From assembly GCA_026400815.1 (NCBI GenBank), contig JAPLOI010000075.1, positions 1-64,000 of the forward strand: a DNA stretch of 64,000 nucleotides. Direction: 5' to 3'. This stretch comes from Alphaproteobacteria bacterium (GTDB taxonomy: Bacteria; Pseudomonadota; Alphaproteobacteria; Acetobacterales; Acetobacteraceae). The notes under the pieces were generated by a model. It made no database searches, had not been told where the DNA came from, and saw nothing but the letters and a program-made list of their open reading frames with translations. Shown here one piece after another: positions 4,106 to 54,083 of the stretch; the stretch's first letter is position 1, and each line of letters opens with the position of its first letter. Position numbers and translations under genes: made by a program.

Positions 4106-4227
4106 AAGCAAGCGGTTTTTTTTTGAAAAAAAGAACCAAAAGGCTTTTGTCCGCTTGCGCCCGGGGGCTATCCCGGGCGCAAGTGGATGAAGTCTTTTTT
4201 GTTTCTTTTTTCTTCAGAAAAAAGAAG
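4106..4227 (+). repeat. Composite hairpin repeat, copy 1
   Basis: First of eight related intergenic elements. Left A/T hairpin (arms GGTT...GAACC with a T9/A7 core), a central 15-bp stem CCGCTTGCGCCCGGG with one G-T wobble and a 6-nt loop, then a right hairpin (TTTCTTTTTTCTTCAGAAAAAAGAAG type). It starts right after the SDR stop codon and lies upstream of the DadA-like gene on the same strand. Its GC-rich stem is the longest perfect one of the family in the window. Confidence 0.9.
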
Positions 4228-4250
4228 AATCCTTTCTTGAGGAGTCTCCC

Positions 4251-5363
4251 ATGAAGGTCGTGGTCGTAGGTGCCGGCGTGTTCGGGGCGAGCGTGGCGTA
4301 TCATCTGGCGCGGGAGGGCGCGGAGGTGGTGGTGTTCGACCGCGACGATGCCGGGCGGGCGACCTCGGCGGGGGCGGGGATTGTGTGCCCGTGGCTGTCG
4401 GCGCGGGAGGATGAGGGGTGGCTGCCGTTGGCCTATGGGGCGGGGCGGTATTATCCGGAGTTGGTGCAGGATCTGGCGGCAGAGGGGGAGACGGATCTGG
4501 GCTATCGGCGGGTGGGGCTGCTGGTGGTGCCGGATGAGGCGAAGCAGCTGGATGCGGTGGAACAGCGCCTGGCGGTGCGGCGGCAGGTGGCGCCGGAGAT
4601 GGGGGTGGTGAAGCGGGTTTCGCCGCAGGAGGCAGTGGGGATGTTTCCGGCGCTGCGGCCGGGGCAGCCGGCGACGCATATCGAGAACGCGGCAAGGGTA
4701 AACGGGCGGCTGATGGCGGCGGGGCTGCTGCGGGCGGCGCAGAAGCGCGGCGCGGTGGTGCGGGCGGGCTCGCCGGAGATCGTGGCCGAGGGCGGGGCCG
4801 CGAAGGGCGTGCGGCTGGGGGGCGAGGTGGTTGGGGCGGATGCGGTGGTGGTGACGGCGGGGGCCTGGGCGCCGGCGCTGCTGTCGCCGCTGGGGGTTTC
4901 GCTGCGGGTGGAGCCGCAGAAGGGGCAGATCGTGCATCTGCGGATGAATGGGGTGGATACCTCGCACTGGCCGGTGCTGCAGCCGATGAACAGCTTCTAC
5001 CTGCTGACTTTCGATGACTCGCGGGTGGTGATCGGGGCGACGCGGGAGTATGGCTCGGGCTTTGATTACCGGGTGACGGCGGCCGGGCAGAAGACGGTGC
5101 TGGACGTGGCGCTGGCGGTGGCGCCGGGGCTGGCGGATGGGGAACTGATCGAGACGCGGATCGGGTTTCGGCCGATGGCGGCGGATGAGTTGCCGATGAT
5201 CGGGGCGGTTTCGGGGGTGCCGGGGTTGTTCGTGGGGAATGGGTTGGGGCCGAGCGGGCTGACGCTGGGGCCGTTTGCCGGGCGGTTGTTGGCGGATGCG
5301 GTGTTGGGGCGGACGGGGGAGATTGGGTTGGGGGCGTATGATCCGTTGCGATACCTCTTGTAA
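4251..5363 (+). CDS. FAD-dependent oxidoreductase, DadA/sarcosine-oxidase family
   Basis: 370 residues. The N-terminal FAD motif GAGVFG occupies 7-12 and is followed by the acidic end of the second strand (VVVFD). A substrate-binding beta-sheet domain lies in the middle, and the C-terminal signature GFRPM...DELPMIG...GNGLGPSGLTLGP closes the FAD fold. The family oxidises secondary or primary amines of amino acids (D-amino acids, sarcosine, glycine) to keto or imino acids. The start ATG 4251 has GAGGAG 8 nt upstream, right after copy 1 of the hairpin repeat. It is probably transcribed alone or with read-through from the SDR gene. The substrate is not predictable. Confidence 0.85.
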   Translation: MKVVVVGAGVFGASVAYHLAREGAEVVVFDRDDAGRATSAGAGIVCPWLSAREDEGWLPLAYGAGRYYPELVQDLAAEGETDLGYRRVGLLVVPDEAKQLDAVEQRLAVRRQVAPEMGVVKRVSPQEAVGMFPALRPGQPATHIENAARVNGRLMAAGLLRAAQKRGAVVRAGSPEIVAEGGAAKGVRLGGEVVGADAVVVTAGAWAPALLSPLGVSLRVEPQKGQIVHLRMNGVDTSHWPVLQPMNSFYLLTFDDSRVVIGATREYGSGFDYRVTAAGQKTVLDVALAVAPGLADGELIETRIGFRPMAADELPMIGAVSGVPGLFVGNGLGPSGLTLGPFAGRLLADAVLGRTGEIGLGAYDPLRYLL

Positions 5364-5375
5364 AATTATAATTTT
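5362..5375. repeat. 14-bp perfect A/T palindrome
   Basis: AAAATTATAATTTT, self-complementary, just after the stop of the DadA-like gene and in the AT-rich lead-in to the low-GC gene at 5434. It may be part of a promoter or simply reflect the foreign composition of this segment. Confidence 0.6.
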
Positions 5376-5433
5376 ATTGTAATGAAAACACCGAGTTTGC
5401 TTACCCTCGCTTCCACGCTTGGACCAATTTCCC

Positions 5434-6258: not shown

Positions 6259-6275
6259 AAAAAAGCCTCTCCTTA

Positions 6276-6316
6276 AAAACAAAAATGCCGCTCCCCCAGA
6301 AATGAAGGGAGCGGCA
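6276..6316 (-). terminator. Rho-independent terminator of the ThDP-enzyme gene
   Basis: A perfect 10-bp stem (6286-6295 TGCCGCTCCC with 6307-6316) with an 11-nt loop. Read on the minus strand it is followed by ATTTTTGTTTTT, the T tract of an intrinsic terminator, 12 nt beyond the stop of the gene ending at 6329. On the plus strand no T run follows, so it does not serve the low-GC gene. Confidence 0.85.
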
Positions 6317-6328
6317 CAATTGTAAAAC

Positions 6329-7963: not shown

Positions 7964-8044
7964 TTGGGTCTCTCTCCCTTAGGACGATATGGGAGCCTAG
8001 GCCGGTGGGGGCGGGCTGGCAACGGTGGGGGCGGGGTTCAAGGG

Positions 8045-8173
8045 AAGGAAGCGTCTTCTTTTTTCTGAAGAAAGAAGAAGCAAAAAAGACTTCATTTGTT
8101 GGGGCTCGCTCCAGGGCGAGCAGCATAGGTATAAAAGTTTTTTGGTTCTTTTTTTCAAAAAAGAACCGCTTGC
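8045..8173 (-). repeat. Composite hairpin repeat, copy 2
   Basis: Minus-strand orientation. Both A/T hairpins are present (TTCTTTTTTCTGAAGAAAGAAG and GGTTCTTTTTTTCAAAAAAGAACC), but the central stem has been reduced to GCTCGC/GCGAGC. Its left-hairpin end touches the stop codon of the ABC ATPase gene (TTA at 8174-8176), which reads TAAGCAAGCGG on the coding strand. Confidence 0.88.
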
Positions 8174-9238
8174 TTAGCCGGAGACGACAGCCAATCCCGC
8201 GGGATCGAAAGACACCCGCACGGCCTGCCCGGCGGCCAGGGGCTGGGCGATATCCGGGGCAACGGCGAACAGCTCCACGTCGTGGCCTTCGAGCATGACA
8301 CCGTATTCCATGTGGCTGCCGAGATAGGCGGCGTGGGCGATGCGGGCGGGGATGCCCTCGGCGCCGAAGCGCAGGGCGTGCGGGCGGATGGCCAGCAGGG
8401 CGGCGCCGGGGGCCACGCCGCGATGGGGCAGGCGCAGGGTGAGGGGGCCGATTGTGGCTTCGCCGGTGGTGGCATCGGCGTGGCGCAGGGCGACGGGGAC
8501 CAGGTTGGCGTTGCCGATGAAGTCGGCCACGAAGCGGCTGGCGGGGGCTTCGTAGAGCTCGCGGGGCGTGCCGTCTTGCGCGATGCGGGCGTGGCTCATG
8601 ACGATGATGCGGTCAGAGACGGCCAGGGCTTCTTCCTGGTCGTGGGTGACGTAGGCGACGGTGAGGCGGAGATCCTGCTGCAGGGCGCGGATTTCGTCGC
8701 GCACGCGGCGGCGGAGCTTGGCATCCAGGTTGGAGAGGGGTTCGTCGAAAAGGAGGACCTTGGGTTCCAGCACGATGGCGCGGGCGACGGCGACGCGCTG
8801 CTGCTGGCCGCCGGAGAGCTCGCTGGGCAGGCGGCGTTCGTAGCCGGTGAGGCCGACGAGGCGCAGCTTGTCCGCGGCGCGGGCCTCGGCATCGGCCTTG
8901 TTGAGTCCGGAGGCGCGCAGGCCGTAGCAGGTGTTTTCCATCACCGTCATGTGCGGAAACAGCGCGTAGGACTGGAACACCATGGAGACGTCGCGGTCGG
9001 CGGCGGAGAGGTGCGTCACGTCCTGGCCGTCGATCAGGATGCGGCCTGCGGTTGCGTGTTCCAGGCCGGCGATGAGGCGCAGCGTGGTTGTCTTGCCGCA
9101 GCCGGAGGGGCCGAGGAGGGTGACCAGCGTGGCGGGCGCGATGTCGAAGCTGACGGCGTCGACCGCGGCGACCTGGCCGAAGCGCTTGGTGACGGTCTGG
9201 AAGGTGACGGCAGGTACGGAAGCGGGGGGCTGGGTCAT
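8174..9238 (-). CDS. ABC importer ATPase, PotA/FbpC type
   Basis: 354 residues. The nucleotide-binding domain has Walker A GPSGCGKTT at 43-51, signature LSGGQQQR, Walker B VLLFDEP and the H-loop THD. The C-terminal 110 residues form a TOBE-like domain, as in importers for iron, polyamines, sugar phosphates and 2-aminoethylphosphonate. It powers the permease whose gene overlaps it by 4 nt (ATGA at 9235-9238). The set SBP, fused permease, ATPase is complete on the minus strand from 12451 to 8174. The substrate is discussed under the binding protein. Confidence 0.92.
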   Translation of the reverse strand: MTQPPASVPAVTFQTVTKRFGQVAAVDAVSFDIAPATLVTLLGPSGCGKTTTLRLIAGLEHATAGRILIDGQDVTHLSAADRDVSMVFQSYALFPHMTVMENTCYGLRASGLNKADAEARAADKLRLVGLTGYERRLPSELSGGQQQRVAVARAIVLEPKVLLFDEPLSNLDAKLRRRVRDEIRALQQDLRLTVAYVTHDQEEALAVSDRIIVMSHARIAQDGTPRELYEAPASRFVADFIGNANLVPVALRHADATTGEATIGPLTLRLPHRGVAPGAALLAIRPHALRFGAEGIPARIAHAAYLGSHMEYGVMLEGHDVELFAVAPDIAQPLAAGQAVRVSFDPAGLAVVSG

Positions 9239-11403: not shown

Positions 11404-11425
11404 CGGGCGGCTGGGCGTGGGTGGT

Positions 11426-12451: not shown

Positions 12452-12543
12452 GGATGGTTCTCCCTGGCGAGGCGTTTCTTTGCGATGGGCAATAGTGGCT
12501 GGCGGGGTGGGCTGCAACAGCACCGTCATTGTGTTGTCATGAT

Positions 12544-15453: not shown

Positions 15454-15458
15454 GCGCC

Positions 15459-16544
15459 ATGCAGATCGATACCGAAACCCTGCTGCCCCTGCCGCCGGAG
15501 GGGGTGGAGCTGCACAGCCCCGATGTGCCCCGGCATGTGTTCACCACCGGGTTCTCCGCCCCGGACGCCAATGGCCGCTGGACCGACGGCCCGCGGTCAC
15601 GCCTGGTGTTCCGCCTGCCGCATCGGCCGGAGGGCGGGGTGGAACTGCGGCTGGAATCGCTCGGCTTTGTCGTGCATGGCGCCATTTTCGAGCAGCAGGC
15701 AGAGATACTGGCAGGCGGGCGCCAGGTCGGGCGCTGGAACGTGATGAGCTCGGCGTTGGTGCCGCGCCTGGTGGTGGTGCCGCGCGAGGCGATGGAGCCG
15801 GATGGCACGGTGGTTCTGGAGTTCCGCATCCCCACCTGCATGCAGCCGGCCCTGGTGCGGCAGGGGGACGACCGCCGGTTCCTGGGGCTGATGCTGCGTC
15901 GCCTTTCCTGGGAGGCACGCCCGGCGCAGCGCCCGCACGACCTCTCCGGCGAAGTGGCGCGGCCGGTGGGGCGGGAATCGCGCAAGAGCTTCGCCGACAA
16001 GATCGCGTCCGGCTTCTGGTCCCGCTTCGTGACGGGCCCGGCGGTGCTGGATGTTGGCTTCCAGGGCGCTTCGGCCGCGGGCAGCGTGGTGCCGATCCTG
16101 CCCGGGGCGATCGGGGTGGATATCGACTATCCCGGCTATGACGGGCGCACCCTGCCGTTTGCCGATGGCAGCCAGGATGCGGTGTATTCCAGCCACTGCC
16201 TGGAGCACATCCCGGACAACATCAAGGCGATCCAGGAATGGCATCGCGTGGTGAAGGTGGGTGGGCACATCATCACCGTGGTGCCGAGCGCGGCGCTGTA
16301 TGAGCGCAAGCGGCGCGTGCCGTCCTATTGGAATGGCGACCACCGGCGCACCTATTCGCCCTCTTCCCTGCTGGCGGAGTTCGAGGCGGCGTTGGCGCCC
16401 AACTCCTATCGCGTGCGGCATTTGGCGGAGAACGACGCCAACTACCAATACGGGCTGCCGCCGAACATGCACCCGGAAGGCTGCCATGAGATCGAGCTGG
16501 TGGTGGAGAAGATCGCGCCGCCGTTGTGGCGGTTGGGGGAGTGA
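15459..16544 (+). CDS. SAM-dependent methyltransferase with N-terminal beta-rich domain
   Basis: 361 residues. The first 170 or so are rich in beta-type, proline-containing segments and resemble no catalytic domain I know. From about residue 185 there is a class I methyltransferase fold: SAM-binding loop VLDVGFQGAS, the acidic strand end IGVDID, and SSHCLEHIPD as motif IV. Such architecture is seen in cell-envelope or polysaccharide methyltransferases, so that is a possible role. It lies 5 nt after iolG and is probably co-transcribed, although no link to inositol is obvious. The stop codon TGA is directly followed by a hairpin repeat. Confidence 0.75.
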   Translation: MQIDTETLLPLPPEGVELHSPDVPRHVFTTGFSAPDANGRWTDGPRSRLVFRLPHRPEGGVELRLESLGFVVHGAIFEQQAEILAGGRQVGRWNVMSSALVPRLVVVPREAMEPDGTVVLEFRIPTCMQPALVRQGDDRRFLGLMLRRLSWEARPAQRPHDLSGEVARPVGRESRKSFADKIASGFWSRFVTGPAVLDVGFQGASAAGSVVPILPGAIGVDIDYPGYDGRTLPFADGSQDAVYSSHCLEHIPDNIKAIQEWHRVVKVGGHIITVVPSAALYERKRRVPSYWNGDHRRTYSPSSLLAEFEAALAPNSYRVRHLAENDANYQYGLPPNMHPEGCHEIELVVEKIAPPLWRLGE

Positions 16545-16661
16545 GGAAGCAAGCGGTTCTTTTTTGAAAAAAAGAACCAAAAAACTTTTCTGGTTTGGCC
16601 GTGGCTAGCCCGGGTGCAATTCGGAAAAGTCTTTTTGCTTCTTTTTCTTCAGAAAAAGAAG
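16545..16661 (+). repeat. Composite hairpin repeat, copy 3
   Basis: Between convergent genes. Left hairpin GGTTCTTTTTTGAAAAAAAG and right hairpin CTTCTTTTTCTTCAGAAAAAG are intact; the central part is degenerate, keeping a CTTTTC/GAAAAG pairing. It starts directly after the methyltransferase stop and ends 4 nt before the stop codon of the enoyl-CoA hydratase gene. Confidence 0.88.
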
Positions 16662-16665
16662 ATTC

Positions 16666-17451
16666 TTACTTGCCTTTGAAGACCGGCCGCCGCTTCTCCA
16701 GGAACGCCCTGGTCCCCTCCGCATGGTCCTCGCTGGTGGAGCACTGCGCGATAATCGCCTCGGCCGCCGCGAGGTCCCGGCGGGATTCGTCGCGGGCGAG
16801 TTCGGCCAGGGCGAGCTTGGCGCCTTTCTGCGTGAGCGGCGCGCCGGCGGCGATGCTTGCGATGTAGTCGGCGGCGAAGGCGTCGATCGCATCGTCGGCC
16901 AGCAGGTGGTTCACCATGCCCAGGCGCAGGGCTTCCTCCGCGCTGTATTGGCGGGCGGTGAACATGATTTCCTTGGCGGTGGAGAGGCCGACGAGTTCCA
17001 CCAGGCGGCGCAGGCCTTCCACGGGGTAGCCGATGGACAGCTTGGCGGCGGGGATGCCGAAGCGGGCGCGGTCGTTGGCCAGGCGCAGGTCGCAGCTGAT
17101 GGCCAGCGCCATGCCGCCGCCGAGGCACCAGCCGCGGATGATGGCGACGGTGGGCTTGGAGACGGCGTGGACGGTGGCGCAGGCGGTGGAGAAGGCGCCG
17201 CCGCCGCGGGTGACGGGGCCTTCGGCGGATTCGAAGCGCGAGATGTCGGCCCCCGAGGCGAAGGCCTTGCGGCCGCTGCCTTCGATGGTGATCAGGCGGG
17301 TTTCGGGATCGGCATCGAAGGCCAGGGCGGCGTCGGTGATGGCCTGCCACATCGGGTTGGAGATGGCGTTGTGGCGGTCTGGGTTGTCGATGGTGATGGT
17401 GCCGACGGCACCCTTGCGTTCCGCGATGATCCTGCCGCCGCCGGTGGCCAT
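16666..17451 (-). CDS. Enoyl-CoA hydratase/isomerase family protein
   Basis: 261 residues. Crotonase-fold motifs are present: the first oxyanion-hole segment ASGADIS and the second RGWCLGGGMALAISCD. A Glu follows in GYPVEG. The usual reaction is hydration of 2-enoyl-CoA, but the superfamily is broad. I chose ATG 17451 because AAGGAG lies 9 nt before it; ATG 17472 overlaps the end of the dppF-like gene. Being the last gene of the peptide-transporter operon, and facing an acyl-CoA dehydrogenase gene at its other end, it may belong to one catabolic route for an imported compound (inference). Confidence 0.85.
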   Translation of the reverse strand: MATGGGRIIAERKGAVGTITIDNPDRHNAISNPMWQAITDAALAFDADPETRLITIEGSGRKAFASGADISRFESAEGPVTRGGGAFSTACATVHAVSKPTVAIIRGWCLGGGMALAISCDLRLANDRARFGIPAAKLSIGYPVEGLRRLVELVGLSTAKEIMFTARQYSAEEALRLGMVNHLLADDAIDAFAADYIASIAAGAPLTQKGAKLALAELARDESRRDLAAAEAIIAQCSTSEDHAEGTRAFLEKRRPVFKGK

Positions 17452-21285: not shown

Positions 21286-21298
21286 GCGTCACTCCTCA

Positions 21299-21398
21299 AA
21301 GCAAGCGGTTCTCTTTTGAAAAAAAGAACCAAAAAACTTTTATCCGTTTGCACCCCGGCCTGGGGCGCAAACGGATACGGTCTCGACCAGCAAAAAAA
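21299..21398 (+). repeat. Composite hairpin repeat, copy 4 (truncated)
   Basis: Only the left hairpin (GGTTCTCTTTTGAAAAAAAGAACC) and the central stem are intact. The central stem ATCCGTTTGC pairs perfectly with GCAAACGGAT, and an inner CCCC/GGGG extends it. The right A/T hairpin is missing and replaced by unrelated sequence. It lies inside the peptide-transporter operon, between the binding-protein stop codon and the DppB start, where it may lower expression of the downstream genes. Confidence 0.85.
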
Positions 21399-23015
21399 CT
21401 AGCGGTTCAACCAGACATCCTCGAACCGATAGCGGTTGTAGGAGGCGTTGTTGGCCATGCGGAAGCCCACCACCTCCGGGTGCCAGCACGTGCCGGAGTG
21501 GTTGTGCAGGATGATCGGCCGCGCCACGTCTTCCTGCAGCTGGCGGTCGATCTCCCACACCATGCGCTTGCGCTTCTCCAGGTCCGTCTCCATCGACTGC
21601 GCCTCGAACATCTTCTCCAGCTCCGGGTTGCAGTAGCCCGTCACGTTGCGTTCGCTTTTGCAGGAGTAGTTCTCGAAGAAGCTCTGGTCGGGGTCGTCCA
21701 CCGAGTTGCCGGTGAGGTTCAGGCCCACGGCATAGTCCTTGCGCGCCACCTTGCCGAACCACACGCCGGTTTCCACGATCTCCAGTTCGCCGTCGATATA
21801 GATCTCCTTCAGATGGTCGATCAGGATCACGGCGGGGTCGCGATAGGCGGCGATGTTGCGGGTGGAGATCTTCACCGCCAGGCGCTTGCCGGGGCCGTAG
21901 CCGTGCTTCTCCATCAGCTTGCGCGCTTCCGCCCGGTTGGCGGCGATGTCTGGCCCGTAGCCGGCGATGCTTTCCAGCATCTCCTTCGGCATGCCCCATA
22001 CGCCCTGTGGCTGCGGCAGCATGGTGCCGCCGACGGAGGCTTCGCCCTCGGCGATGATGGTGTTGAACGCCTTGCGGTCCAGCGAGAGCGCCATGGCGCG
22101 GCGCAGATCCGCGTTGTCGAAGGGCGGCTTGTCGCGGTTCACGATCAGGTTGGTGGAAACGTTCACCGGCCCCATGTGGCAGATCGCCTTCGGCGCCTGG
22201 GTACGAAGGTCGCGCAGCACCTGCTGTGTCACTTCGGTGGGGAAGGTGAGGTCCAGCTTGCCGGAGATGAAGGCCAGCATCGCGGTGGAGCGGTTGGTGA
22301 TGATCGGCATCTCCACGCCATCCAGATACGGGCGGCCCGGCTTCCAGTATTCCGTGTTGCGGGTCAGGCGGATCATCTCGTTCTGCTTGAACTCGGCCAG
22401 CTTGAACGGCCCGGTGCCGATCGGCCGCGTGCGCATGCCGGCGGCATTCACGTGGCACGGGTACATCGGCGTGTAGCCGGAGGCGAGCAGGTTCAGCAGC
22501 GAGGGCTGCGGCCGGCCCAGCTTCAGCGTCACCTCATGGTCGCCGTTCGGCACCACATCCAGCACGTTGTCGTACAGCGAGCGGCGCGGGTTGGTGCGCA
22601 GCTTGTCCTCTTTCTTGCCCTGCACGAGATCGAAGGTGCACTTCACGTCTGCCGCGGTGAACGGCTTGCCGTCATGCCACTTCACGCCCGGCTGCAGGGT
22701 GAAGGTGAGCGATTTGCCGCCATCGCCCCAGGCCCACTTTGTGGCCAGCTCCGGGATGATGGTGTCGAAGGAATCGAGCTCCTTCGCATGATCGTACATC
22801 ACCAGGTTGTTGTAGAGGCCCATGAAGGGCGCGTTCACCGAGAAGGTGGCGCCCTCATGGATAGAGGCGCTGGGCGGGTTGTCGCGCTGGTACATGCGCA
22901 GGATGCCCCCGCGCTTCGGCTCCTGCGCCATGGCGGGCGCAAGGGCGGCGGTGCCCACCAGGACACCGGCGAGAGCGAAGGCAGACGCAAACAGGGCGGC
23001 GGTTCGTCGCAGCAC
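21399..23015 (-). CDS. Peptide-type ABC transporter substrate-binding protein (family 5)
   Basis: 538 residues from GTG 23015, preceded by GGAGG 8 nt upstream. The signal peptide ends at LAPAMA-QEPKRGG, so the protein is periplasmic. It matches family-5 binding proteins in length and in motifs such as KSLTFTLQPGVKWHDGKPFTAADV. The family carries peptides, nickel, glutathione, opines and other compounds, so the true ligand is open. It heads the five-gene importer operon. The gap of 189 bp to the divergent acyl-CoA dehydrogenase gene probably holds both promoters. Confidence 0.9.
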   Translation of the reverse strand: MLRRTAALFASAFALAGVLVGTAALAPAMAQEPKRGGILRMYQRDNPPSASIHEGATFSVNAPFMGLYNNLVMYDHAKELDSFDTIIPELATKWAWGDGGKSLTFTLQPGVKWHDGKPFTAADVKCTFDLVQGKKEDKLRTNPRRSLYDNVLDVVPNGDHEVTLKLGRPQPSLLNLLASGYTPMYPCHVNAAGMRTRPIGTGPFKLAEFKQNEMIRLTRNTEYWKPGRPYLDGVEMPIITNRSTAMLAFISGKLDLTFPTEVTQQVLRDLRTQAPKAICHMGPVNVSTNLIVNRDKPPFDNADLRRAMALSLDRKAFNTIIAEGEASVGGTMLPQPQGVWGMPKEMLESIAGYGPDIAANRAEARKLMEKHGYGPGKRLAVKISTRNIAAYRDPAVILIDHLKEIYIDGELEIVETGVWFGKVARKDYAVGLNLTGNSVDDPDQSFFENYSCKSERNVTGYCNPELEKMFEAQSMETDLEKRKRMVWEIDRQLQEDVARPIILHNHSGTCWHPEVVGFRMANNASYNRYRFEDVWLNR

Positions 23016-23204: not shown

Positions 23205-24293
23205 ATGACCGACCTCGCCGCTTTCGCGCGCGCCCACATCGCCCCGCGCGACCTTCTCGCCAGCCCCACCCTGCCGCCGGACCTGTGGGCCGAAATGGCC
23301 GCGGCCGGGCTGTTCCGCATCGGCCTGCCCGCGGAACACGGCGGAGACGGCGGCAGCTATGCCGACATCGCCGAGGCCGAGCGGGTGCTGGTGCAGGAAG
23401 GCGGCTCCACCGGGCTCGCCGGCATCTGGGCCAGCCACCAGATGGTGCCGCGCTGGTTCATCGTCGGCTTCGGTACGCCGGCGCAGCAGGCCCACTGGTT
23501 GCCCCGCTTCACCAGCGGCGCGCTCACCGGCGGCGTGGCGATCTCGGAGCCCAAGGTGGGCGCCCACCCCAAGCTGCTCAGCACCACGGCCACGCGGGAT
23601 GGCGATTCCTGGGTGCTGGACGGCGAGAAATCCTACGTCACCAACGGCGACCGCGCCGGGCTTTACATGGTGCTGGCGATCACCGCGATGCAGGGCGAGC
23701 GCAAGCGCTACTCCTTCTTCATGGTGCTGCGCGACACCCCGGGGCTGGAAGTGGTGGAGGCTGAAACACCCCCCTCCATGTGGCCCGTCGGTCATGTCGC
23801 CCTGCGCCTCAAGGGCTGTCGCGTGCCTGCCGAGGCCCTGCTCGGCCCGCAGGACGGCGCCTATGACGCCATCGCGCTGCCCTTCCGGGACGCGGAAGAC
23901 GCCATCGGCACCTCCAGCCAGGCCGGCAACCTGCCGGGGATCGTGCGCCTGCTGGCCGCCGAACTGCCCAATCCCGCCCCCGAGGAGGCCGTGGCCGAGC
24001 TCGGCGCGCTCGCCGGCCTCGCCGCCCTGGTCGCCCCCGCCGCCGCCGCGCTGGCCCGTGCCGTGGATGCGCGCGCCTGGGACGGGCCTGAGGCGCAGGC
24101 CCTGCTGATCGGCCTGCGCCAGCACGCCGCCCACTTTCATGCCCGCGCCTCCGCGTTTCGCGATGCCCATGCGGCGCGCCGTGGTGCGAAGCTGGATGCG
24201 CGGCTGCATAGCATTCAGACCTCTCTCTCGGTCGCGCGTGGGCCGCGGGCGATACGGATGGCGCGGCTGGGGGCGCAAATGATGCCGAAGTAA
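23205..24293 (+). CDS. Acyl-CoA dehydrogenase family protein
   Basis: 362 residues from ATG 23205 with GGAGG 9 nt upstream. The N-terminal helical part (FRIGLPAEHGGDGG), the FAD/substrate middle domain (GGVAISEPKVG, then LDGEKSYVTNGDRAG) and a C-terminal helical domain are visible. The protein is a little shorter than typical 380-residue members, and the C-terminal domain looks reduced and Ala-rich, so the catalytic Glu cannot be placed by eye. Expected reaction: alpha,beta-dehydrogenation of an acyl-CoA. It may work with the enoyl-CoA hydratase of the neighbouring operon. Confidence 0.8.
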   Translation: MTDLAAFARAHIAPRDLLASPTLPPDLWAEMAAAGLFRIGLPAEHGGDGGSYADIAEAERVLVQEGGSTGLAGIWASHQMVPRWFIVGFGTPAQQAHWLPRFTSGALTGGVAISEPKVGAHPKLLSTTATRDGDSWVLDGEKSYVTNGDRAGLYMVLAITAMQGERKRYSFFMVLRDTPGLEVVEAETPPSMWPVGHVALRLKGCRVPAEALLGPQDGAYDAIALPFRDAEDAIGTSSQAGNLPGIVRLLAAELPNPAPEEAVAELGALAGLAALVAPAAAALARAVDARAWDGPEAQALLIGLRQHAAHFHARASAFRDAHAARRGAKLDARLHSIQTSLSVARGPRAIRMARLGAQMMPK

Positions 24294-24430
24294 GAAAGCG
24301 CGTTCTTTTTTGAAAAAAAGAACCAAAAAACTTTTGTTCGTTTGCGCGGCGGTTCAACTCCTGGATGGGGCGCAAGCGAAGGAAGTCTTTTTTGCTTCTT
24401 TTTTCTTCAGAAAAAAGAAGGCGCTTCCTT
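24294..24430 (+). repeat. Composite hairpin repeat, copy 5
   Basis: Complete copy. Left hairpin GTTCTTTTTTGAAAAAAAGAAC, central stem TTCGTTTGCGC paired with GCGCAAGCGAA around a 20-nt loop, right hairpin CTTCTTTTTTCTTCAGAAAAAAGAAG, and outer ends AAAGCGC/GCGCTT. It starts directly after the TAA stop of the acyl-CoA dehydrogenase gene and lies upstream of glnS. Confidence 0.92.
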
Positions 24431-37917: not shown

Positions 37918-38499
37918 ATGGAAACGGGTGTCGGCAGCCTGGGGCTGTTCGTGGCGACGATCGGCTTCTCGGTGGGGCTGGACGCGGATGTGTTCCGCGC
38001 GGGCTCGGCTGTGCTGCTGGCCGGGCTGGGCCTGGTGCTGCTGAGCGGGCGGCTTCAGGCGCGCCTCGCGATGGCGGCTTCGGGCGTGGGCGATGCGGGC
38101 AACCGGTTGCTGGACCGGCTGGCGCCGGGCGGGCTGTGGGGCCAGGCGGTGATCGGGCTGGTGCTGGGGGCGATCTGGTCCCCGTGCGTGGGGCCGACGC
38201 TGGGGGCGGCTTCCGTGCTGGCGGCGCAGGGGCAGGATTTGGGCGCGGTGGCGTCGGTGATGGCGGCGTTCGGGCTGGGGGCGGGGCTGCCGCTGGCGCT
38301 GGTGGCGAGCTTGTCGCGCGAGGCGCTGAAGCGCTGGCGCGGGCGGATGCTGGGGGCGGGGCAGGCGGGGAAGAGCGTGCTGGGCGTGGGCGCGATGGCG
38401 GTGGCCGGGCTGATCCTGACCGGGTGGGACAAGGCGCTGGAGGCGGCGCTGGTTCGGGCCTCACCGGAATGGCTGACGGATTTGACCACCCGATTCTAG
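37918..38499 (+). CDS. CcdA/DsbD-like membrane protein lacking the N-terminal Cys motif
   Basis: 193 residues, shorter than the roughly 240 of CcdA. Full CcdA proteins have two Cys, one in a first-helix motif of SPCxLP type and one in the fourth-helix motif. Here only the second is present, Cys90 in IWSPCVGPTLGAA. The sequence starts inside what is normally the second helix (LFVATIGFSVGLD). So the N-terminal 55-60 residues are absent, and I see no frame upstream that supplies them, because the thioredoxin gene ends normally 5 nt before. Electron transfer by the standard two-Cys mechanism should be impaired unless another protein helps. Confidence 0.75.
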   Translation: METGVGSLGLFVATIGFSVGLDADVFRAGSAVLLAGLGLVLLSGRLQARLAMAASGVGDAGNRLLDRLAPGGLWGQAVIGLVLGAIWSPCVGPTLGAASVLAAQGQDLGAVASVMAAFGLGAGLPLALVASLSREALKRWRGRMLGAGQAGKSVLGVGAMAVAGLILTGWDKALEAALVRASPEWLTDLTTRF

Positions 38500-38626
38500 G
38501 AAGAATCTTCTTTTTCTGAGTAAAAAGAAGCAAAAAGACTTTTATTCGTTTGCGCGCGGCGCGGCCGGGTTCAAAGTTACAAAAGTTTTTTGGTTCTTTT
38601 TTTTCAAAAAAGAACATTATTCCTTC
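38500..38626 (-). repeat. Composite hairpin repeat, copy 6
   Basis: Between convergent genes and flush with both stop codons (38499 and 38627). The right-type hairpin CTTCTTTTTCTGAGTAAAAAGAAG comes first and GTTCTTTTTTTTCAAAAAAGAAC last. The central stem is partly degenerate, with TATTCGTTTGCGC kept on one side only, and a GC-rich core. Confidence 0.88.
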
Positions 38627-41600
38627 CTACAGTACAAACCACCACGACCGCACCGGCCCGGCCAGCGCCAGGGTGATGGTGAGGTCCGCCGCCGGGTCGG
38701 CGTTGACGTTGCCTTGGACCAGCAGCATGCCGCCGCCGAGATCCTGCCAGCGGAGTTCGCCGGGGGTGCTGCTGAAGGCGTTGGTACCGATGACGGTGAA
38801 GGCCTGGTTGCCCGAGGTGCCGGCGATGGCGTCGATGGCCGAGAGGTCCAGGCGTTCGCCGTCGGCGGGGTTGAAATCGGTGAAGGTGGCGCTGTTGGCG
38901 GGGCCGACGGCGCTGGGGAGGAAGCGGAACTGGTCTCGCCCGGCGCCGGCGGTGATGGTGTCTTGCCCCTGGCCAATGAGGAAAAGGTCGGGGCCGGCGG
39001 TGCCGGAGAGGCTGTCGTTGCCGGTGGTGCCGATGATGGTGTCGTCGTCGGTGACGATGCCGCGGGCGGTGGCGACTGCGATGTCGGCGCCGGAGCCGTT
39101 GAAGAGGGTGACGTTGAAGTTCTCGTTCAGCTCGGCGCGGCGGTCTGCGGCGATGTTGACGGTGATGGTTTGGGTGGTGACGCCGTTGGCGAAGGTAAGC
39201 TCGCCCGAGGGCAGCACGCCGCCGGCGAAATCGTCGGCTGAGATGGGCAGTGTGCCGGCCAGGGTGCCGGGGGTTACGTTCCAGCTGACGGCGGCAATGG
39301 TGTTGAGGAAGCCGGTGCGGGTGACGGTGAAGGCCATCGGCGTGGTGCCGGCGTTGCCCTCGGCGGCGAAGACGGCATTGGGCCCGATGGTGAAGCGGGC
39401 GTCGTCGTTCATGATGACGCCGGTGGCAACGCTGTTGCCGAGATGGGCGCCGCCGGTGGGGTTGGAGAGCGTGACCTGGAAGCGCTCGTTGAATTCCACG
39501 ATGCGGTCGGGGGCGACCGGGACGATGATTTCCTTGCGCACCTCGCCTTCGGCCCAGGTGACGGTGCCGGAGGGCAGGACGCCGCCGACGAAATCGGCGC
39601 CGTTGGCGGGCAGGGTGCCGGGACCTTCGAGGCCCCGGACCGACCAGGCAACGGTCTGGCCCGCGGGCGTCGCGCTATTGCGGGTGAGGATGTAGATGTA
39701 GGGGGAGACGATGCTGTTCGCCTCGTAGCCGACGTTGTTCCAGTTGGAGAGGGTGATCTCGGAATCGTCGGCCAGGATGGTGCCGAAGGCGGTGTCGTTG
39801 GTGATGGTGGCGCCGGCGGAGGGGACCTGGAGCACGACCTTGAACCAGTCATCCGGCTCGTACTCGATGTCGCCCTTGGTCTGGACGGTGATGGTGCGGG
39901 TGGTGTCGTTCGGGCCGAAGGTGAGGCTGCCGGAAGGCAGGGTGCCGCCGACGAAATCCGACGCCTCGGCGCCGTAGGGCTGGACGAGCCAATCGACGGT
40001 GGCGGTGGGGCCGGTGCCGCGGCGGGTGGCGGTGAAGGTGAAGGTTTGGGTGCCGCTGTGGCCTTCCGTGCGGGTGATGGTTTCCGCGACGAGGGCGAGG
40101 TTGACGTCGTCGTTCAGGACGGCGGCGCTGGCGAAGGCGGTGCCGATGGTGGCGCCGAGCGAGGCATCGGAGAGGGTGACGCCGAAGCGTTCGTTCAACT
40201 CGCCGATGCCGTCTGCGGCGATGTTGACGGTGACGGTGGCCTTGGTCTGGCCCGGGGCGAAGCTGACGCGGCCGAAGGGCAGGACGCCGCCGGCGAAGTC
40301 GCTGGCGTCTGAGGGGATGGTGCCGACATCGACGGCGCCAGCGGCGGACCATTCGGCGCTGATGGCGGTGGAGGTGACGCCGGAGCGGGTGACGGTGAAT
40401 TTGAACGGGGTGCTGCCGCCGGGGCTGCCGGCGGTGGTGCCCTCCGTGCGGGTGACGCCGGCGCCGGAGATGGTGAGGATGGCCAGGCCATCGGTGTCGT
40501 CGTTGACGATGGTGGCCAGGGCGTTGGCCTGGCTGATGGTGGTGCCGGCGGTGGGGCTGTTCAGCGTGACGGCGAAGCGTTCGTTCTGTTCGCCCTTGGT
40601 GTCGGCCGCGACGGCGACGGTGACGGTGGCCTTGGTTTGGCCGGCGGCGAAGCTGACGGTGCCGGAGGGGAGCACGGCGCCCACGAAATCGGCCGCATCC
40701 GCCGGGGCGGTGCCGATGCCGATGGCGCCGGTGGCCGACCAGCCCACCGTGAAGGGCGTGGCGGTGGCGCCGGTGCGGGTGATGGTGAAGTTGTAGGCGG
40801 TGCTGCCGCTGTTTCCCTCGGCCGCGGTGGCGGTGGCGGCGGCGATGGAGAGGCTGGGCTGGTCGCCGGGGGCGGCTTGGGCGAAGGCGAGGCGGCCGAT
40901 GGTGCCGCCGTAGAGGTTGGCATAGTAGAGCGCGCCGTCCTGCCCCTGGACCATGTAGATCGGGCCGTAATCGCCGGGCCAGTCGGTGAGGTAGGTGATG
41001 TCGGTGCGGTTGGTGGTGCTGACGGCGAAGAGGTCGCCGCCGACGAAGTTGCTGAACACGAAGCTGCCGCCAAGGCCGGCGGGGATGTTCGGGCTGTCGT
41101 TCACCACGCCGCTGGCGATGATGGCCTGCACCTGGTAGCCCGGCGCCACAGTGCTGTGGGAGAAGGCGCGATAGGCCGGGGTGACGACGGTGGTGCCGTT
41201 GGCGACCGCGGCATAGAAATCGGTGGCGCTGGCGAAATCGCGGTATTGCGGGGTTTGGAACAGGGTGCCGTTGTCTGCACCCTCATAGAATGGCCAGCCG
41301 AAATTGGCGCCGGGGCCGGCCATGTTGATCTCTTCGTAGGCGAACCAGCCGACATCGGCGACGAAGAGGTTGCCTTCGGCATCGAACGCGCCGGAGAAGG
41401 GGTTGCGCAGGCCGTATTGCCAGATCTTGGCGCGGTTGGCGTCGAGATCCTCGGCCTGGGTGGCGAAGGGGTTGTCGGCGAGGCCGCGGCCGGTGATGGG
41501 GTCTATGCGCAGGACCTTGCCGGAGAGGCTGTCCAGCGACTGGACATCGGGCGTGCGGGGGTCTGGGTAGTCGTAGGAGGTGCCGTCGCCGGTGAAGGCG

Positions 41601-42586: not shown

Positions 42587-42706
42587 CGGTTCGTTTCCTT
42601 GCCAGGGCACGGACCGTGCCGCCGCGGATTTATCGCACGGCGTGCAGCCGTGGGCACCCGGTGCGGGCGCCCAACGGCCGCATATTCTCAAGATGTGATC
42701 GAGAGA

Positions 42707-44488: not shown

Positions 44489-44601
44489 GGCGGGCTTCCC
44501 GTGCGTGAGTCGGACGAGAGGGTAGCGCGGCGGGGCGGTGGGGCCAAATCGGGCCGTTGCCGGCATGAGGCGATGGCGGCACACTCGCGGCACGCAATCA
44601 A

Positions 44602-44949: not shown

Positions 44950-45495
44950 ATGTTTGTGGTCGTCGTTGGGCCTTCTGGGGCGGGCAAGGATACGTTGATG
45001 GCCCGTGCCCGGGCGTTGCTTGGCGACGACCCGCGCTTTCGGTTCGTGCGGCGCGAGATCACGCGGCCGGCGGAGGCGGGGGGCGAGGATCATGACCCGG
45101 TGACGCCGGAGGCGTTCGCGGCGCGGCGGGATGCGGGGGCCTATGCGCTGTCTTGGGAGGCGCATGGGCTGGGGTATGGGATTCCGGCCGATGTGGCCGG
45201 GGATGTGGCGGCCGGGCGGGTGGTGATCGCGAATATCTCGCGGGCCAAGATCGCAGAGGCTGCCGTGAAGTTTCCCACCTTGGCGCTGGAGATCACGGCG
45301 CCGGCCGACGTGCTGGCGGCGCGGCTGGCGGCGCGGGGGCGGGAGACGGCGGAGGATATCGCCCGGCGGCTGGCGCGCGAGGTCGGGCTGCCGGAGGGGG
45401 TGCGGGTGGCGCGGGTGATGAATGACCGGTCCGCTGAAGAAGGGGCGGAGGCGGTGGTGCGGGTGTTGAAGGAAGCAAGCGGTTCTTTTTTGTAA
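44950..45495 (+). CDS. phnN: Ribose 1,5-bisphosphate phosphokinase
   Basis: 181 residues. The P-loop is GPSGAGKDT at 7-15, and the guanylate-kinase-like fold follows (FVRREITRPAEAGGEDH, TPEAFAARRDAGAYALSWEAHGLGYGIP). PhnN converts ribose 1,5-bisphosphate to PRPP, the salvage step after C-P lyase. The natural end should be near VVRVLK; the last residues EASGSFL and the TAA stop are encoded by hairpin repeat copy 7. The gene is convergent with the main phn operon. Confidence 0.9.
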   Translation: MFVVVVGPSGAGKDTLMARARALLGDDPRFRFVRREITRPAEAGGEDHDPVTPEAFAARRDAGAYALSWEAHGLGYGIPADVAGDVAAGRVVIANISRAKIAEAAVKFPTLALEITAPADVLAARLAARGRETAEDIARRLAREVGLPEGVRVARVMNDRSAEEGAEAVVRVLKEASGSFL

Positions 45496-45596
45496 AAAAG
45501 AACCAAAAAATTTTTATTCGTTTGCTGGTCGTCTGGCACGGGCGCAAGCGAATGAAGTCTTTTTTGCTTCTTTTTTATTCAGAAAAAAGAAGACGC
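45471..45596 (+). repeat. Composite hairpin repeat, copy 7 (contains phnN stop)
   Basis: Left hairpin is a near-perfect palindrome here (GGTTCTTTTTTGTAAAAAAGAACC): the second loop base is T where other copies have A, which creates the TAA stop of phnN. Central stem ATTCGTTTGC pairs with GCAAGCGAAT. The right hairpin has one base change (TTTTATTCAG for TTTTCTTCAG). It ends flush with the stop of the convergent DUF1045 gene. Confidence 0.9.
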
Positions 45597-46271
45597 TTAC
45601 CCTTTGAGCGGCACCCGTTGCGCGATGGTGAAGGGGGCGCCAGGCGCGGCCTGGGTGAAGAGCGCAATATCGGTGACGCGGCGCGGTTGTTCCAGGATTG
45701 GATCGAAGAAATCCGTCGCGGCCGGCAGGTAGAGGTCCTTCTCGGGCGCGGTGAGGCGGCGCGTGAGGGTCATGTGGAAAAAGAATTCGCCGAAGACGTA
45801 GGTGTAGCCCCAGCGTTGCAGCAGGGCTTCCTGCGCGGGGGGGAGGTGACCGTTCTTGCGGCGCTTGGCCAGTTCGGCCTCGGAGAGCGGCGCGCGCAGA
45901 TGGTCGACGCCGGCGACGCAGAGGTCGGCCAGGGCTTGCAGCGCGTGGCTTTGCTGGGTTTCGCGGAGGGCCAGGAAGCCGTGCAGGTCTTGCACCGCCA
46001 GTGGAGGCAGGTCGAACGGGCGGATTCCGGCGGCGACGTGCTCGACGGCTTCGACAAAGCTGTTCCAGTGCACGCCTTCGGCGAGGCGGAACGGGGCCTT
46101 GAGCGTGGCGTGGAAGCCGTAGCCGCGCGCATCCTCGGTGATGGCGGCGATGTTGGGCAGGTCTGGCTGGCGCTTCGGCGCGTTGGTTTCGGCATCGCGG
46201 CCGAGCCAGGTGGAGGCGGCGGCGTGGAGCGGGTCTTCGATCGGCGGGGCGTAGTAAAGCGCGACGCGCAT
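45597..46271 (-). CDS. DUF1045 / 2H-type phosphoesterase of phosphonate operons
   Basis: 224 residues from ATG 46271. Two HxT motifs, His54 (YGFHATLKAP) and His166 (FFFHMTLTRR), are the catalytic pair of the 2H phosphoesterase superfamily. DUF1045 genes are found almost only in C-P lyase operons and may act on a cyclic phosphate such as ribose 1,2-cyclic phosphate made by PhnPP-like steps; phnP is not in this window, so it may replace it (inference). It is the last gene of the operon; a linker with a 10-codon mini-ORF precedes it. Confidence 0.82.
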   Translation of the reverse strand: MRVALYYAPPIEDPLHAAASTWLGRDAETNAPKRQPDLPNIAAITEDARGYGFHATLKAPFRLAEGVHWNSFVEAVEHVAAGIRPFDLPPLAVQDLHGFLALRETQQSHALQALADLCVAGVDHLRAPLSEAELAKRRKNGHLPPAQEALLQRWGYTYVFGEFFFHMTLTRRLTAPEKDLYLPAATDFFDPILEQPRRVTDIALFTQAAPGAPFTIAQRVPLKG

Positions 46272-50894: not shown

Positions 50895-50897
50895 GGC

Positions 50898-51999: not shown

Positions 52000-52042
52000 G
52001 CCATGAGTGCACGATCGGGCGCGGCGCGTGGATGAAGTTCCG

Positions 52043-52783
52043 ATGACGATGGAGGCTGGCGCGCGGGCGCTGGGCGTGCGCGGCGTGGCGCTGTGGCGGC
52101 GCATCGTGGAAGCGGTGGAGCAGGAGATCGCGGCGGGCGCGCTGGCGCCGGGGGCGAAGCTGGCGACCGAGGCACAGATGGCGGTGCGGTTCGGGGTGAA
52201 CCGGCACACGGTGCGCCGGGCGCTGGAGGAATTGTCGCGCAACGGGCTGGTGCGGGTGGAGCAGGGGCGCGGCAGCTTCGTGGCGGAGGACGTGCTGGAC
52301 TACACGATCGGGCCGCGCACCCGCTTCTCGGAATGGATCCGGCGGCACAACAAGGAACCTTCGGGCCGCACGCTGGATCTGCGCGAGGTGCCGGCCGACC
52401 AGGCGGTGGCGGCCGGGCTGGGCATCCGCACGGGTGCCAAGGTGGTGCGGCTTGAGCGGCTGGGCCTGGCCGATGGGCGCCCGGTGAGCATCGGCGTGCA
52501 TCATTTCCCGGCGGCGCGGTTTCCGAAACTGCTGGCGGTGCTGCGCGACGGGGCCGGCATTTCCGAAGCGCTGGCGCAGGCCGGCGTGGAGGATTATCGG
52601 CGCCAGGTGACGCGGGTTTCGGCGCGTATGCCAACGGAAGCGGAGGCGGCGCTGCTGGGCATGCCGCGCAACCGGCCGCTGCTGATGACGGAGAACATCA
52701 ACGTGGATGCGGCGGGCGCGGTGGTGGAGTTCGGCCTCTCGCGCTATCCGACTCCGCGCGTGCAGCTCGTCTTCGAGCCCTGA
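52043..52783 (+). CDS. phnF: GntR/HutC-family regulator of phosphonate use
   Basis: 246 residues from ATG 52043; GTG 52007 and ATG 52049 are alternatives. The N-terminal winged helix has LATEAQMAVRFGVNRHTVRRAL, the GntR recognition helix (quoted parts: TEAQMAVRFGVNRHT), and the C-terminal UTRA domain has GRPVSIGVHHFPAARF. PhnF represses phn genes when no phosphonate is present. Divergent from phnG, and followed by a second phnM-like gene 30 nt later in the same direction. Confidence 0.88.
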   Translation: MTMEAGARALGVRGVALWRRIVEAVEQEIAAGALAPGAKLATEAQMAVRFGVNRHTVRRALEELSRNGLVRVEQGRGSFVAEDVLDYTIGPRTRFSEWIRRHNKEPSGRTLDLREVPADQAVAAGLGIRTGAKVVRLERLGLADGRPVSIGVHHFPAARFPKLLAVLRDGAGISEALAQAGVEDYRRQVTRVSARMPTEAEAALLGMPRNRPLLMTENINVDAAGAVVEFGLSRYPTPRVQLVFEP

Positions 52784-52813
52784 GCGGCCGGGACATAACA
52801 AGGGAACGGGACG

Positions 52814-53956
52814 ATGCGGGCATTGCGGATCACCGGCGGCAACGTGCTGGCCGAGGGTGGGTTGACCGAGGGCGAGGTGACGCTGCGCGACGGCGTGATC
52901 GATGACGGGGCGCCGGACGGTGCCCAGGTGCTGGATGCCCGCGGGCTGATGGTGCTGCCGGGAATCGTGGACATGCATGGCGATGCCTTCGAGCGGCAGT
53001 TCCAGCCGCGGCCGGGCGTGGGCTTTCCGACCGATCTCGCGCTGGAAGAGACGGAGCGGCAGTTGCTGGCCTGCGGCGTGACCACCGCGTTCCATGGCGT
53101 GACGCTGTCCTGGGAGCCCGGCCTGCGCAGCGCTGATGCATGGCGGGCAATGCTGGATGGGCTCGCAGCCCGTGCCTGGACCTGCGACATGCGCGTGCAT
53201 CTGCGTTGGGAGGCCTACAACCTCGATGCGCTGGACATGGCGATTGCGGATATCGCCGCCGGGCGGGTGCATATGCTGGCGTTCAACGACCACACGCCCT
53301 CCATCCTGAAGAAGCTGGGCGACGCCACAACGGGGGCGAAATACAGCGACCGGGCCGGGATGGAGCTGGAAGCGTTCCGGACTCTGGCCGCAAAGGTGGG
53401 CGCGCGGGCAGGCGATGTGCCGGCGGCGCAGGCGCGCATTGCCGCGGCGGCGCGGGCGGCGGGCATCCCGATGGCGAGCCACGACGACGACACGATTGGC
53501 ACGCGCGACGGGTTCCGGGCCGAGGGGGCGCGGATCTGCGAGTTCCCGGTGGCGGAGGAGGTCGGCGTGGCGGCCCGGGCGGCGGGGGATTTCGTGGCGA
53601 TGGGCTCGCCCAACGTGGTGCGCGGCAAGTCTCATCTCGGCTGGGCCTCGGCGGCGACACTGGCGGAGGCGGGCATCTGCAACGTGCTGTGCAGCGACTA
53701 CTACTACCCCTGCCTGTTGCGGGCGCCGTTCGTGCTGGCGGGGCGGGGCGTGCTCAGCCTGGCGCAGGCCTGGGCGCTGGTTTCGGCCAATGCGGCGGCG
53801 GCGGGCGGGCTTGCGGATCGCGGCGTGATTGCGCCGGGGAAGCGTGGCGACCTGGTGCTGGTGGATGCGTCGGGGCCGGCGCCCCGGTTGGTTGGAACGA
53901 TCGTGGGTGGGGTGCCGGCGCATCTGACGGCCGAGGGGTGGGGCCGGATTCAGTAA
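52814..53956 (+). CDS. Second PhnM-like amidohydrolase
   Basis: 380 residues. It matches PhnM in length and plan but has VDMHGDAFE (HGDA 55-58) in place of HTDN, RQFQPRPGV, and later SHDDDT and FPVAEEVG. The protein is clearly a paralogue of the PhnM at 46303. It could hydrolyse the same 5-triphosphate, work on a variant made from another phosphonate, or have a different cyclic or triphosphate substrate. It shares a direction with phnF and probably its transcript, so PhnF may control it. It ends against hairpin repeat copy 8. Confidence 0.85.
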   Translation: MRALRITGGNVLAEGGLTEGEVTLRDGVIDDGAPDGAQVLDARGLMVLPGIVDMHGDAFERQFQPRPGVGFPTDLALEETERQLLACGVTTAFHGVTLSWEPGLRSADAWRAMLDGLAARAWTCDMRVHLRWEAYNLDALDMAIADIAAGRVHMLAFNDHTPSILKKLGDATTGAKYSDRAGMELEAFRTLAAKVGARAGDVPAAQARIAAAARAAGIPMASHDDDTIGTRDGFRAEGARICEFPVAEEVGVAARAAGDFVAMGSPNVVRGKSHLGWASAATLAEAGICNVLCSDYYYPCLLRAPFVLAGRGVLSLAQAWALVSANAAAAGGLADRGVIAPGKRGDLVLVDASGPAPRLVGTIVGGVPAHLTAEGWGRIQ

Positions 53957-54083
53957 GCAAGGCTTCTTCTTTTTCTGAAGAAAAAAAAGCAAAAAGACTT
54001 TTGTTCGTTTGCTGGCATCTGGCGCGCGTGCAAGCGAACAAAAGTTTTTTGGTTCTTTTTTTCAAAAAAGAACATGCTTCCTT
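53957..54083 (-). repeat. Composite hairpin repeat, copy 8
   Basis: Minus-strand orientation. The central stem is long here: CTTTTGTTCG pairs with CGAACAAAAG and TTGC with GCAA inside it, with one C-A mismatch. Right-type hairpin CTTCTTTTTCTGAAGAAAAAAAAG and left-type hairpin GTTCTTTTTTTCAAAAAAGAAC are both present. It starts directly after the TAA stop of the second phnM gene. Confidence 0.92.

What the first reader, a model, noticed from the sequence alone, without database searches (positions are those of the whole stretch)
4106..54083. Eight copies of a composite three-hairpin repeat at gene ends
Each unit joins a left A/T hairpin (GGTTC-T6/A6-GAACC), a central GC-rich stem and a right A/T hairpin (CTTC-T6/A6-GAAG). 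Their order is fixed and they occur in both orientations. The central stem varies but stays paired: CCGCTTGC/GCAAGTGG in copy 1, ATCCGTTTGC/GCAAACGGAT in copy 4, TTCGTTTGCGC/GCGCAAGCGAA in copy 5, ATTCGTTTGC/GCAAGCGAAT in copy 7. Such covariation suggests the fold is selected. Outer ends (GGAAGC / GCTTCC) look like terminal inverted repeats, as in a MITE or REP element. Function could be transcription end, mRNA protection or non-autonomous mobility.
Basis: seen in the sequence. Interest (0 to 1): 0.85.

Follow-up and report, generated by a model that had tools for sequence, protein, structure and literature searches.

The report
Gene-end element carrying stop codons
In uncultured relatives of acetic acid bacteria, about two hundred copies of a small folded DNA element sit tightly against the ends of genes and appear to supply both the gene's stop codon and a two-way transcription stop signal; how the copies spread is not known.

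Summary
The eight copies are real (seven complete). The genome holds about 227 (229+225 pattern hits, reversed control 0). All 8 other genus genomes tested carry the motif, as do scattered genera of the family. Two A/T hairpin arms are conserved (median pairwise identity 0.92 and 0.94). The GC core is almost unrelated between copies (0.54; shuffled 0.50), yet in the own genome it folds better than chimeras of other copies' cores. Elements sit at gene 3' ends: 33 of 147 convergent, 61 of 744 tandem and 2 of 149 divergent gaps. The stop codon lies in the element's outer (AAGN)n tract: 63 of 109 abutting genes end in TAA, against 83 of 928 others. In 38 ortholog groups with both states, TAA is commoner with the element in 20 and rarer in 2. 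Terminator-like hairpins occur at 77 of 109 element-bearing ends and 47 of 400 sampled others. Best reading: a dispersed bidirectional intrinsic terminator that brings its own stop codon. The means of spread is unknown, and no RNA data were available. Closest known: SPRITE and REP/BIME. New variant of a known kind.

The parts
4105..4236 (+). copy 1, complete; starts at the TAG stop of the upstream + gene, ends about 20 nt before the ATG of the next + gene (tandem gap)
   Evidence: orthologous copies in G001, G004, G002
8043..8176 (-). copy 2, complete but with weak central stem; abuts the TAA stop of the - gene 8174-9238 (tandem gap)
16543..16675 (+). copy 3, complete; fills a convergent gap from stop to stop (TGA at one end, TAA at the other)
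21298..21405 (+). copy 4, left arm and central stem only (right hairpin decayed); between a - gene at 21399-22958 and the permease-like - gene 20338-21252; G004 has a complete element here
24290..24430 (+). copy 5, complete; starts in the TAA stop of the + gene ending at 24293
38497..38633 (-). copy 6, complete; fills a convergent gap, TAG stop at each end
45470..45601 (+). copy 7, complete; convergent gap, TAA stop in the right outer tract; absent from G002
53950..54083 (-). copy 8, complete; TAA stop in the outer tract of the right-arm end (tandem gap)
45481..45504 (+). example of the left A/T hairpin (copy 7)
45505..45566 (+). example of the central stem: A-tract, variable GC core, T-tract (copy 7)
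45567..45592 (+). example of the right A/T hairpin (copy 7)

Best explanation
The unit is a dispersed gene-end element that acts as a bidirectional intrinsic transcription terminator and carries its own stop codon. Anatomy, read inward from either end: an (AAGN)n tract that contains or follows the stop codon of the gene running into it, an A/T hairpin, an A-tract, a GC-rich core stem, then on the far side a T-tract, a second A/T hairpin and the mirrored tract. From either strand RNA polymerase meets a GC-rich stem followed by T-runs. Shown here: copy number, arm conservation, core exchange with pairing kept (own genome), 3'-end placement, avoidance of divergent gaps, TAA enrichment with ortholog comparison, species-level presence/absence. 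Inferred: that termination really happens, that the stop codon is delivered by insertion rather than evolving afterwards, and that copies move by an unidentified route.
For: About 227 elements in 5.1 Mb. 3' ends only: own full elements 45 tandem, 26 convergent, 2 divergent, against 234/65/113 gaps of 90 nt or more; of all own gaps 33/147 convergent, 61/744 tandem, 2/149 divergent. Stop codon 3-17 nt from the hairpin base in 57 of 63 half-elements with a gene end nearby (recounted). TAA 63/109 against 83/928 in own, 13/35 against 35/270 in G003, 24/48 against 16/289 in G008, 15/32 against 36/286 in G093 of another genus. 38 ortholog groups: TAA commoner with the element in 20, rarer in 2, equal in 16. 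A clean site: own L003 ends ..CTC GCC TGA; G002 reads ..CTC TAA + element, with a TGA on the far side; the gene call supports the own stop, and matches of G001, G004 and G007 span the site at equal or nearly equal length. Terminator-like hairpin plus U-tail 77/109 against 47/400; 51 of 76 full elements in both directions. Core MFE -19.84 against -13.61 for chimeras (SD of 20 set means 0.59) in own.
Against: In 25 of 45 own tandem cases the next start codon lies within 33 nt of a point about 7 nt beyond the far hairpin: too close for a promoter of its own, so a full terminator would silence the next gene. The simple terminator scan found 12 sites against 12.0 in shuffles for window 3000-22900. 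The fixed-register pairing test showed no excess, and the chimera effect is weak in G003 (-20.77 against -18.83, SD 1.86) and G008 (-18.34 against -16.79, SD 0.95). Stop identity also changes after insertion (copy 3: TGA own and G001, TAG G007, TAA G004), and 16 of 38 ortholog groups show no difference in TAA. G012 shows no TAA excess (2/6). At own L218 16319 the stop is TAG followed by retained host spacer. No transcript data. My gene calls come from a home-made codon-score caller.
Confidence: 0.6

Rival explanations
1. REP/BIME-like intercistronic element: the folds mainly protect the upstream message from 3' exonucleases and tune expression between genes of one transcript, with termination partial or absent.
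For: 25 of 45 own tandem cases leave no room for a promoter before the next gene; copy 4 lies between a - gene and a permease-like gene, a place where REP elements are known to act (recalled); hairpins lie a few nt after the stop codon.
Against: T-tracts follow the GC stem in both directions in 51 of 76 full elements. Convergent gaps carry the element 2.7 times as often as tandem gaps, which fits two 3' ends per gap; this rival would share that, so the point is weak.
Confidence: 0.22
2. Selfish dispersed element without host function. It survives at gene 3' ends because insertions in genes and promoters are lost, and tiny gaps make it look tailored to stop codons. Apparent covariation comes from template switching between inverted arms.
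For: Gaps without the element are tiny (own convergent median 29 nt, lower quartile 3; tandem median 25), so a snug fit is expected. Presence differs within genera (g66 79 against 1 hits, g80 62 against 0, g73 10 against 428). Copies decay by internal deletion. Template switching could mimic compensatory change (recalled mechanism).
Against: Arms are conserved in place at orthologous sites while the core turns over (copy 1 in own, G001, G002), which recent copying alone does not give. Same arms in another genus (G093). Stop codons differ from element-free orthologs.
Confidence: 0.13
3. The arms are DNA-uptake-like signal words that the cell has also taken into terminators, as in Neisseria and Pasteurellaceae.
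For: Hundreds of copies of a conserved word, often as inverted pairs at gene ends, as passages of PMC1852404 report for uptake signals.
Against: Words here are about 35 nt arms of two distinct types rather than 9-11 nt, and in the sampled loci they occur at gene ends rather than scattered; I ran no count of lone arms inside genes.
Confidence: 0.03

Closest known systems
[quoted passage not shown]
   Same: Short interspersed repeat resembling an intrinsic terminator, overrepresented between convergent genes, close to gene 3' ends, no transposase found, target duplication not established.
   Different: SPRITE has 30 copies, one 18-bp duplex with a U-rich tail and AAAA/TTTT ends. Here about 227 copies, two A/T hairpins around an exchangeable core, terminator-like in both directions, stop codon embedded, filled and empty sites readable.
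REP/BIME elements and their RAYT (Y1) transposases (recalled)
   Same: Palindromic, extragenic, near gene 3' ends, hundreds of copies, paired inverted units.
   Different: Y1 transposase found in only 3 of 9 genus genomes including own; variable core; (AAGN)n ends rather than the short fixed motif of REPs (recalled).
Uptake signal sequences that form terminators (PMC1852404, passages seen)
   Same: A repeated word present as an inverted pair forms the terminator.
   Different: Longer, two distinct arms around a variable core, stop codon in the flank.
MIRU of mycobacteria (PMC12548453, one passage seen)
   Same: Appears mobile and inserts at a codon boundary between genes, so that translation signals are preserved.
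   Different: MIRU is described as inserting at start codons and carrying an ORF; here the element lies at stop codons and has terminator-like folds.
MITEs in general (PMC10969869, passages seen)
   Same: Small, non-coding, foldable, dispersed.
   Different: No fixed terminal inverted repeat, no visible target duplication, no parent transposon identified.

Membership tests
Intrinsic (Rho-independent) terminator | GC-rich hairpin directly followed by a U-rich tail | tested here: met
   77 of 109 element-bearing gene ends against 47 of 400 sampled element-free ends; 51 of 76 full elements in both directions. Met in most, not all. The generic scan showed no excess over shuffles in window 3000-22900.
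Intrinsic (Rho-independent) terminator | transcripts end there | not testable with these tools
   no RNA data
MITE | fixed terminal inverted repeats | tested here: not met
   outer ends are a variable (AAGN)n / (NCTT)n tract
MITE | target-site duplication | tested here: inconclusive
   none visible at the readable filled/empty sites, but these are few and partly diverged
MITE | parent transposon with matching ends | tested here: inconclusive
   six wide inward-facing arm pairs in 1.22 Mb own + 0.78 Mb G003/G008; six ORFs from three of them gave no transposase family in Pfam; the rest of the genomes was not searched
REP mobilised by RAYT | Y1 transposase in genomes with many copies | tested here: not met
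   PF01797 found in G000, G001, G007 only; none in G002-G006 and G008, which carry 385-640 hits; these are draft genomes, 68-98% complete
SPRITE | terminator-like repeat enriched in convergent gaps and near 3' ends | tested here: met
SPRITE | sequence relationship to SPRITE | not tested
   no SPRITE sequence was fetched
Rfam families | match at gathering score | tested here: not met
   only three tRNAs in the window; copy 7 below threshold best to Plastid-psbA-2 3' UTR, 28.8 against 55.8 bits
DNA uptake sequence | preferential uptake | not testable with these tools
   needs transformation assays

The most novel reading that the evidence does not exclude
A mobile 'gene-end cassette': an element that inserts at the last codons of genes through an unidentified route without target duplication, delivers a new stop codon and a two-way terminator in one step, keeps two recognition arms nearly fixed across genera while its core is freely exchanged, and has thereby rewritten the 3' ends of a few per cent of genes in whole lineages of Acetobacteraceae.
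Probability: 0.3. Interest if true: 0.8.

Novelty: new variant of a known kind. Interest (0 to 1): 0.58.

Why it matters
If right, it shows that gene punctuation (stop codon plus terminator) can be delivered as one spreading module, so that stop-codon usage and terminator content of a genome depend partly on a dispersed element. It makes testable how terminators arise in genomes whose tail-to-tail genes otherwise have almost no space between them (own element-free convergent gaps: median 29 nt), and it offers compact two-way terminators with an exchangeable core.

Tried and rejected
Rejected or weakened: (a) RAYT/Y1 mobilisation. (b) A parent transposon with the same ends: six wide arm pairs, no transposase among six ORFs from three of them. 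(c) Insertion exactly between T and GA of TGA: CTT-GA on the far side of tandem copies is only modestly enriched, 11 of 70 against 20 of 349 (p 0.009); kept as a hint. (d) Fixed-register core pairing: no excess; replaced by the chimera test. (e) The generic terminator scan showed no excess. (f) Rfam: nothing at gathering score. (g) Plasmids: two Pseudoroseomonas cervicalis records at 75-77% identity. (h) Papers: no description of this element found in ten searches of the held library; most subscription papers are not held.

Limits: own regions L001-L020 were chosen because they held hits; G012, G028 and G093 regions too. 51 sequences in A2 were drawn at random from elements with 20-50 nt cores: own 26 of 64, G003 8 of 19, G008 8 of 28, G002 4 of 8, G012 all 3, G028 all 2. 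L and R labels are unreliable because the two fuzzy patterns match each other. Some L-only and R-only rows are the same element read on both strands. Two figures in my notebook are wrong and corrected here: 57 of 63 (not 59) for the stop distance, and 353-640 (not 349-640) hits in the genus.
Full report
Observation. The eight units exist as described, except that copy 4 lacks its right hairpin and the outer ends are not fixed repeats. Each folds better than its shuffles (z -3.3 to -7.7 for the eight copies read arm-first). Several copies, folded alone, prefer one long hairpin to three separate ones.

Copy number and distribution. The arm pattern with up to 2 mismatches gives 229 forward and 225 reverse hits in the 5.11-Mb own genome and none for the reversed control. 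A complete element gives one hit per arm, so I estimate about 227 elements. All 8 other genus genomes have 353-640 hits. In a draw of 140 family genomes 47 match; 18 genomes in 14 genera have more than 50 hits, with differences inside genera (g66 79 against 1, g80 62 against 0, g73 10 against 428, g86 186 against 15). Outside the family, counts in the 24 same-class genomes were of the order of their controls. By contig number and length, G001, G003, G004, G007 and G008 correspond to the MAG records CANHKG01, CAMBRC01, CAMDAM01, JAIXTK01 and CAMDGX01, titled Rhodospirillales, 'Asaia bogorensis' or Acetobacteraceae; one title names a pond.

Anatomy. Arms: left GTTCTTTTTTGAAAAAAAGAACCAAAAAACTTTT, right AAAAGTCTTTTTGCTTCTTTTTCTTCAGAAAAAGAAG. 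Among 76 own full elements the median pairwise identity is 0.917 and 0.943, ungapped; in G003 and G008 the left arm reads 0.75 and 0.86 by the same ungapped measure. The core runs from 7 to 103 nt with pairwise identity 0.54 against 0.50 for shuffled cores. At orthologous sites arms stay while the core turns over with its stem kept, for example copy 1 in own, G001 and G002.

Pairing. In own, 74 cores fold at -19.84 kcal/mol on average against -13.61 for chimeras of halves from different elements (SD of 20 set means 0.59) and -11.41 for shuffled cores. In G003 (29) the values are -20.77 against -18.83 (SD 1.86), and in G008 (37) -18.34 against -16.79 (SD 0.95), so the effect is weak there. A test at fixed register showed no excess (own 5.31 against 5.34 pairs of 14); allowing an offset gave 6.64 against 5.79 in own. 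In the 51-sequence alignment (50 distinct) 96.6% of arm and proximal-stem cells pair (shuffled 94.4 +- 0.2) and 29 cells change on both sides (6.5 +- 2.1; 0 of 500), 18 of them at one pair; the innermost proximal pair fails in 24 of 50. Other genera show further compensated hairpin changes, such as CTTC/GAAG to CTCC/GGAG. Template switching between inverted arms could mimic part of this (recalled).

Place. In the window plus L001-L020, 53 rows with two neighbours give 36 tandem, 17 convergent, 0 divergent, against 75/26/35 gaps of at least 100 nt. With 1.22 Mb of own sequence: 45/26/2 full elements against 234/65/113 gaps of at least 90 nt; G003 20/7/0 and G008 14/17/1. Of all own gaps, 33 of 147 convergent, 61 of 744 tandem and 2 of 149 divergent carry an element; convergent against divergent p 2.6e-9. 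Orientation relative to the upstream gene is near even in own (25 against 20) and leans to the left arm in G003 (13 against 7) and G008 (10 against 4). Element-free own gaps are tiny (convergent median 29, tandem 25), so a snug fit is partly what any insertion would give.

Stop codon. Of 63 half-elements with a gene end nearby, 57 have the stop codon ending 3-17 nt from the hairpin base, three have it inside the hairpin, three lie further off (recounted). Abutting genes end in TAA in 63 of 109 (own), 13 of 35 (G003), 24 of 48 (G008), against 83 of 928, 35 of 270 and 16 of 289 elsewhere, and in 15 of 32 against 36 of 286 in G093 of another genus; G028 gave 4 of 12 against 6 of 60, G012 2 of 6 against 7 of 51. 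The last codon is AAG in 15 of 109 against 17 of 928 in own. Among 56 discordant ortholog pairs (not independent; some 'without' members hold decayed elements) TAA is present in 25 with and 5 without. Grouped into 38 ortholog sets: 20 up, 2 down, 16 equal, p 1.2e-4; AAG last codon 9 up, 1 down.

Filled and empty sites. Of 44 elements in 169 relative loci, 31 could be placed in own, 28 filled, 3 rows empty (2 sites). At own L003 17932-17934 the gene ends CTC GCC TGA; G002 reads CTC TAA, the element, then CTTGAGGAG before the next ATG, so a new stop lies before the element and a TGA after it. Matches of G001, G004 and G007 span this place at equal or nearly equal length; I did not read their letters there. 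At own L218 16319-16460 the reverse holds: own filled, G004 empty, and here the stop is TAG followed by retained spacer. Spans of G001 and G002 suggest that they hold the element. No target duplication is visible. Copies also decay: G001 has fused a right with a left hairpin at L218 15041. After insertion the stop can still change: copy 3 reads TGA, TAG or TAA in four species. In G003 and G006 the enoyl-CoA hydratase gene that bears copy 3 in own carries an element in the opposite orientation beside another neighbour.

Function. A hairpin of -10 kcal/mol or better followed by a U-rich tail was found at 77 of 109 element-bearing ends and 47 of 400 sampled element-free ends; 53 of 76 full elements qualify from left to right, 69 from right to left, 51 both. 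The generic scan gave 12 sites against 12.0 in shuffles. In own tandem cases 25 of 45 leave no more than 33 nt (from about 7 nt beyond the hairpin) to the next start, so termination there must be partial or the role is REP-like.

Movement. The Y1 family is present in 3 of 9 genus genomes including own. Six wide arm pairs were seen; six ORFs inside three of them carry no transposase domain. The route of spread is open.

Known kinds. Passages of PMC3049150 describe SPRITE, the nearest relative in kind; PMC1852404, PMC12548453, PMC10969869 and PMC2267715 were also seen as passages. Ten library searches found no description of this element (listed under Tried and rejected). I file it as a new variant of a known kind: a dispersed terminator-like repeat, with a stop codon in its ends and an exchangeable core as the new features.

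Noticed in passing
window 44489-44601 (L123-L137 relatives): This divergent gap is 113 nt in own and G001 but 635 nt in G007 and G004, with an insertion flanked by inverted CACGGAGG-type repeats: another apparently mobile family.
   Followed up: no
window 5364-6328: 965 nt of AT-rich sequence with an ORF at 5419-6258(+), where G001 and G002 have only 55 nt holding an ordinary hairpin.
   Followed up: no
window 38627-42691: Large minus-strand ORF (1354 aa) whose DNA holds direct repeats spaced about 340-390 nt.
   Followed up: no
L192 14928-14957 and several loci: GC palindromes of the type CCGCTTCGCGACCCGCCCTACG beside or inside elements, possibly a second palindromic family.
   Followed up: no
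L312-L352 (viral contigs): The exact left arm word occurs in 41 stretches of IMG/VR contigs; whether phage or host flank was not examined.
   Followed up: no
L224 10390-11316: RES-domain protein next to a protein with an Xre/MbcA/ParS antitoxin domain, a likely toxin-antitoxin pair.
   Followed up: no
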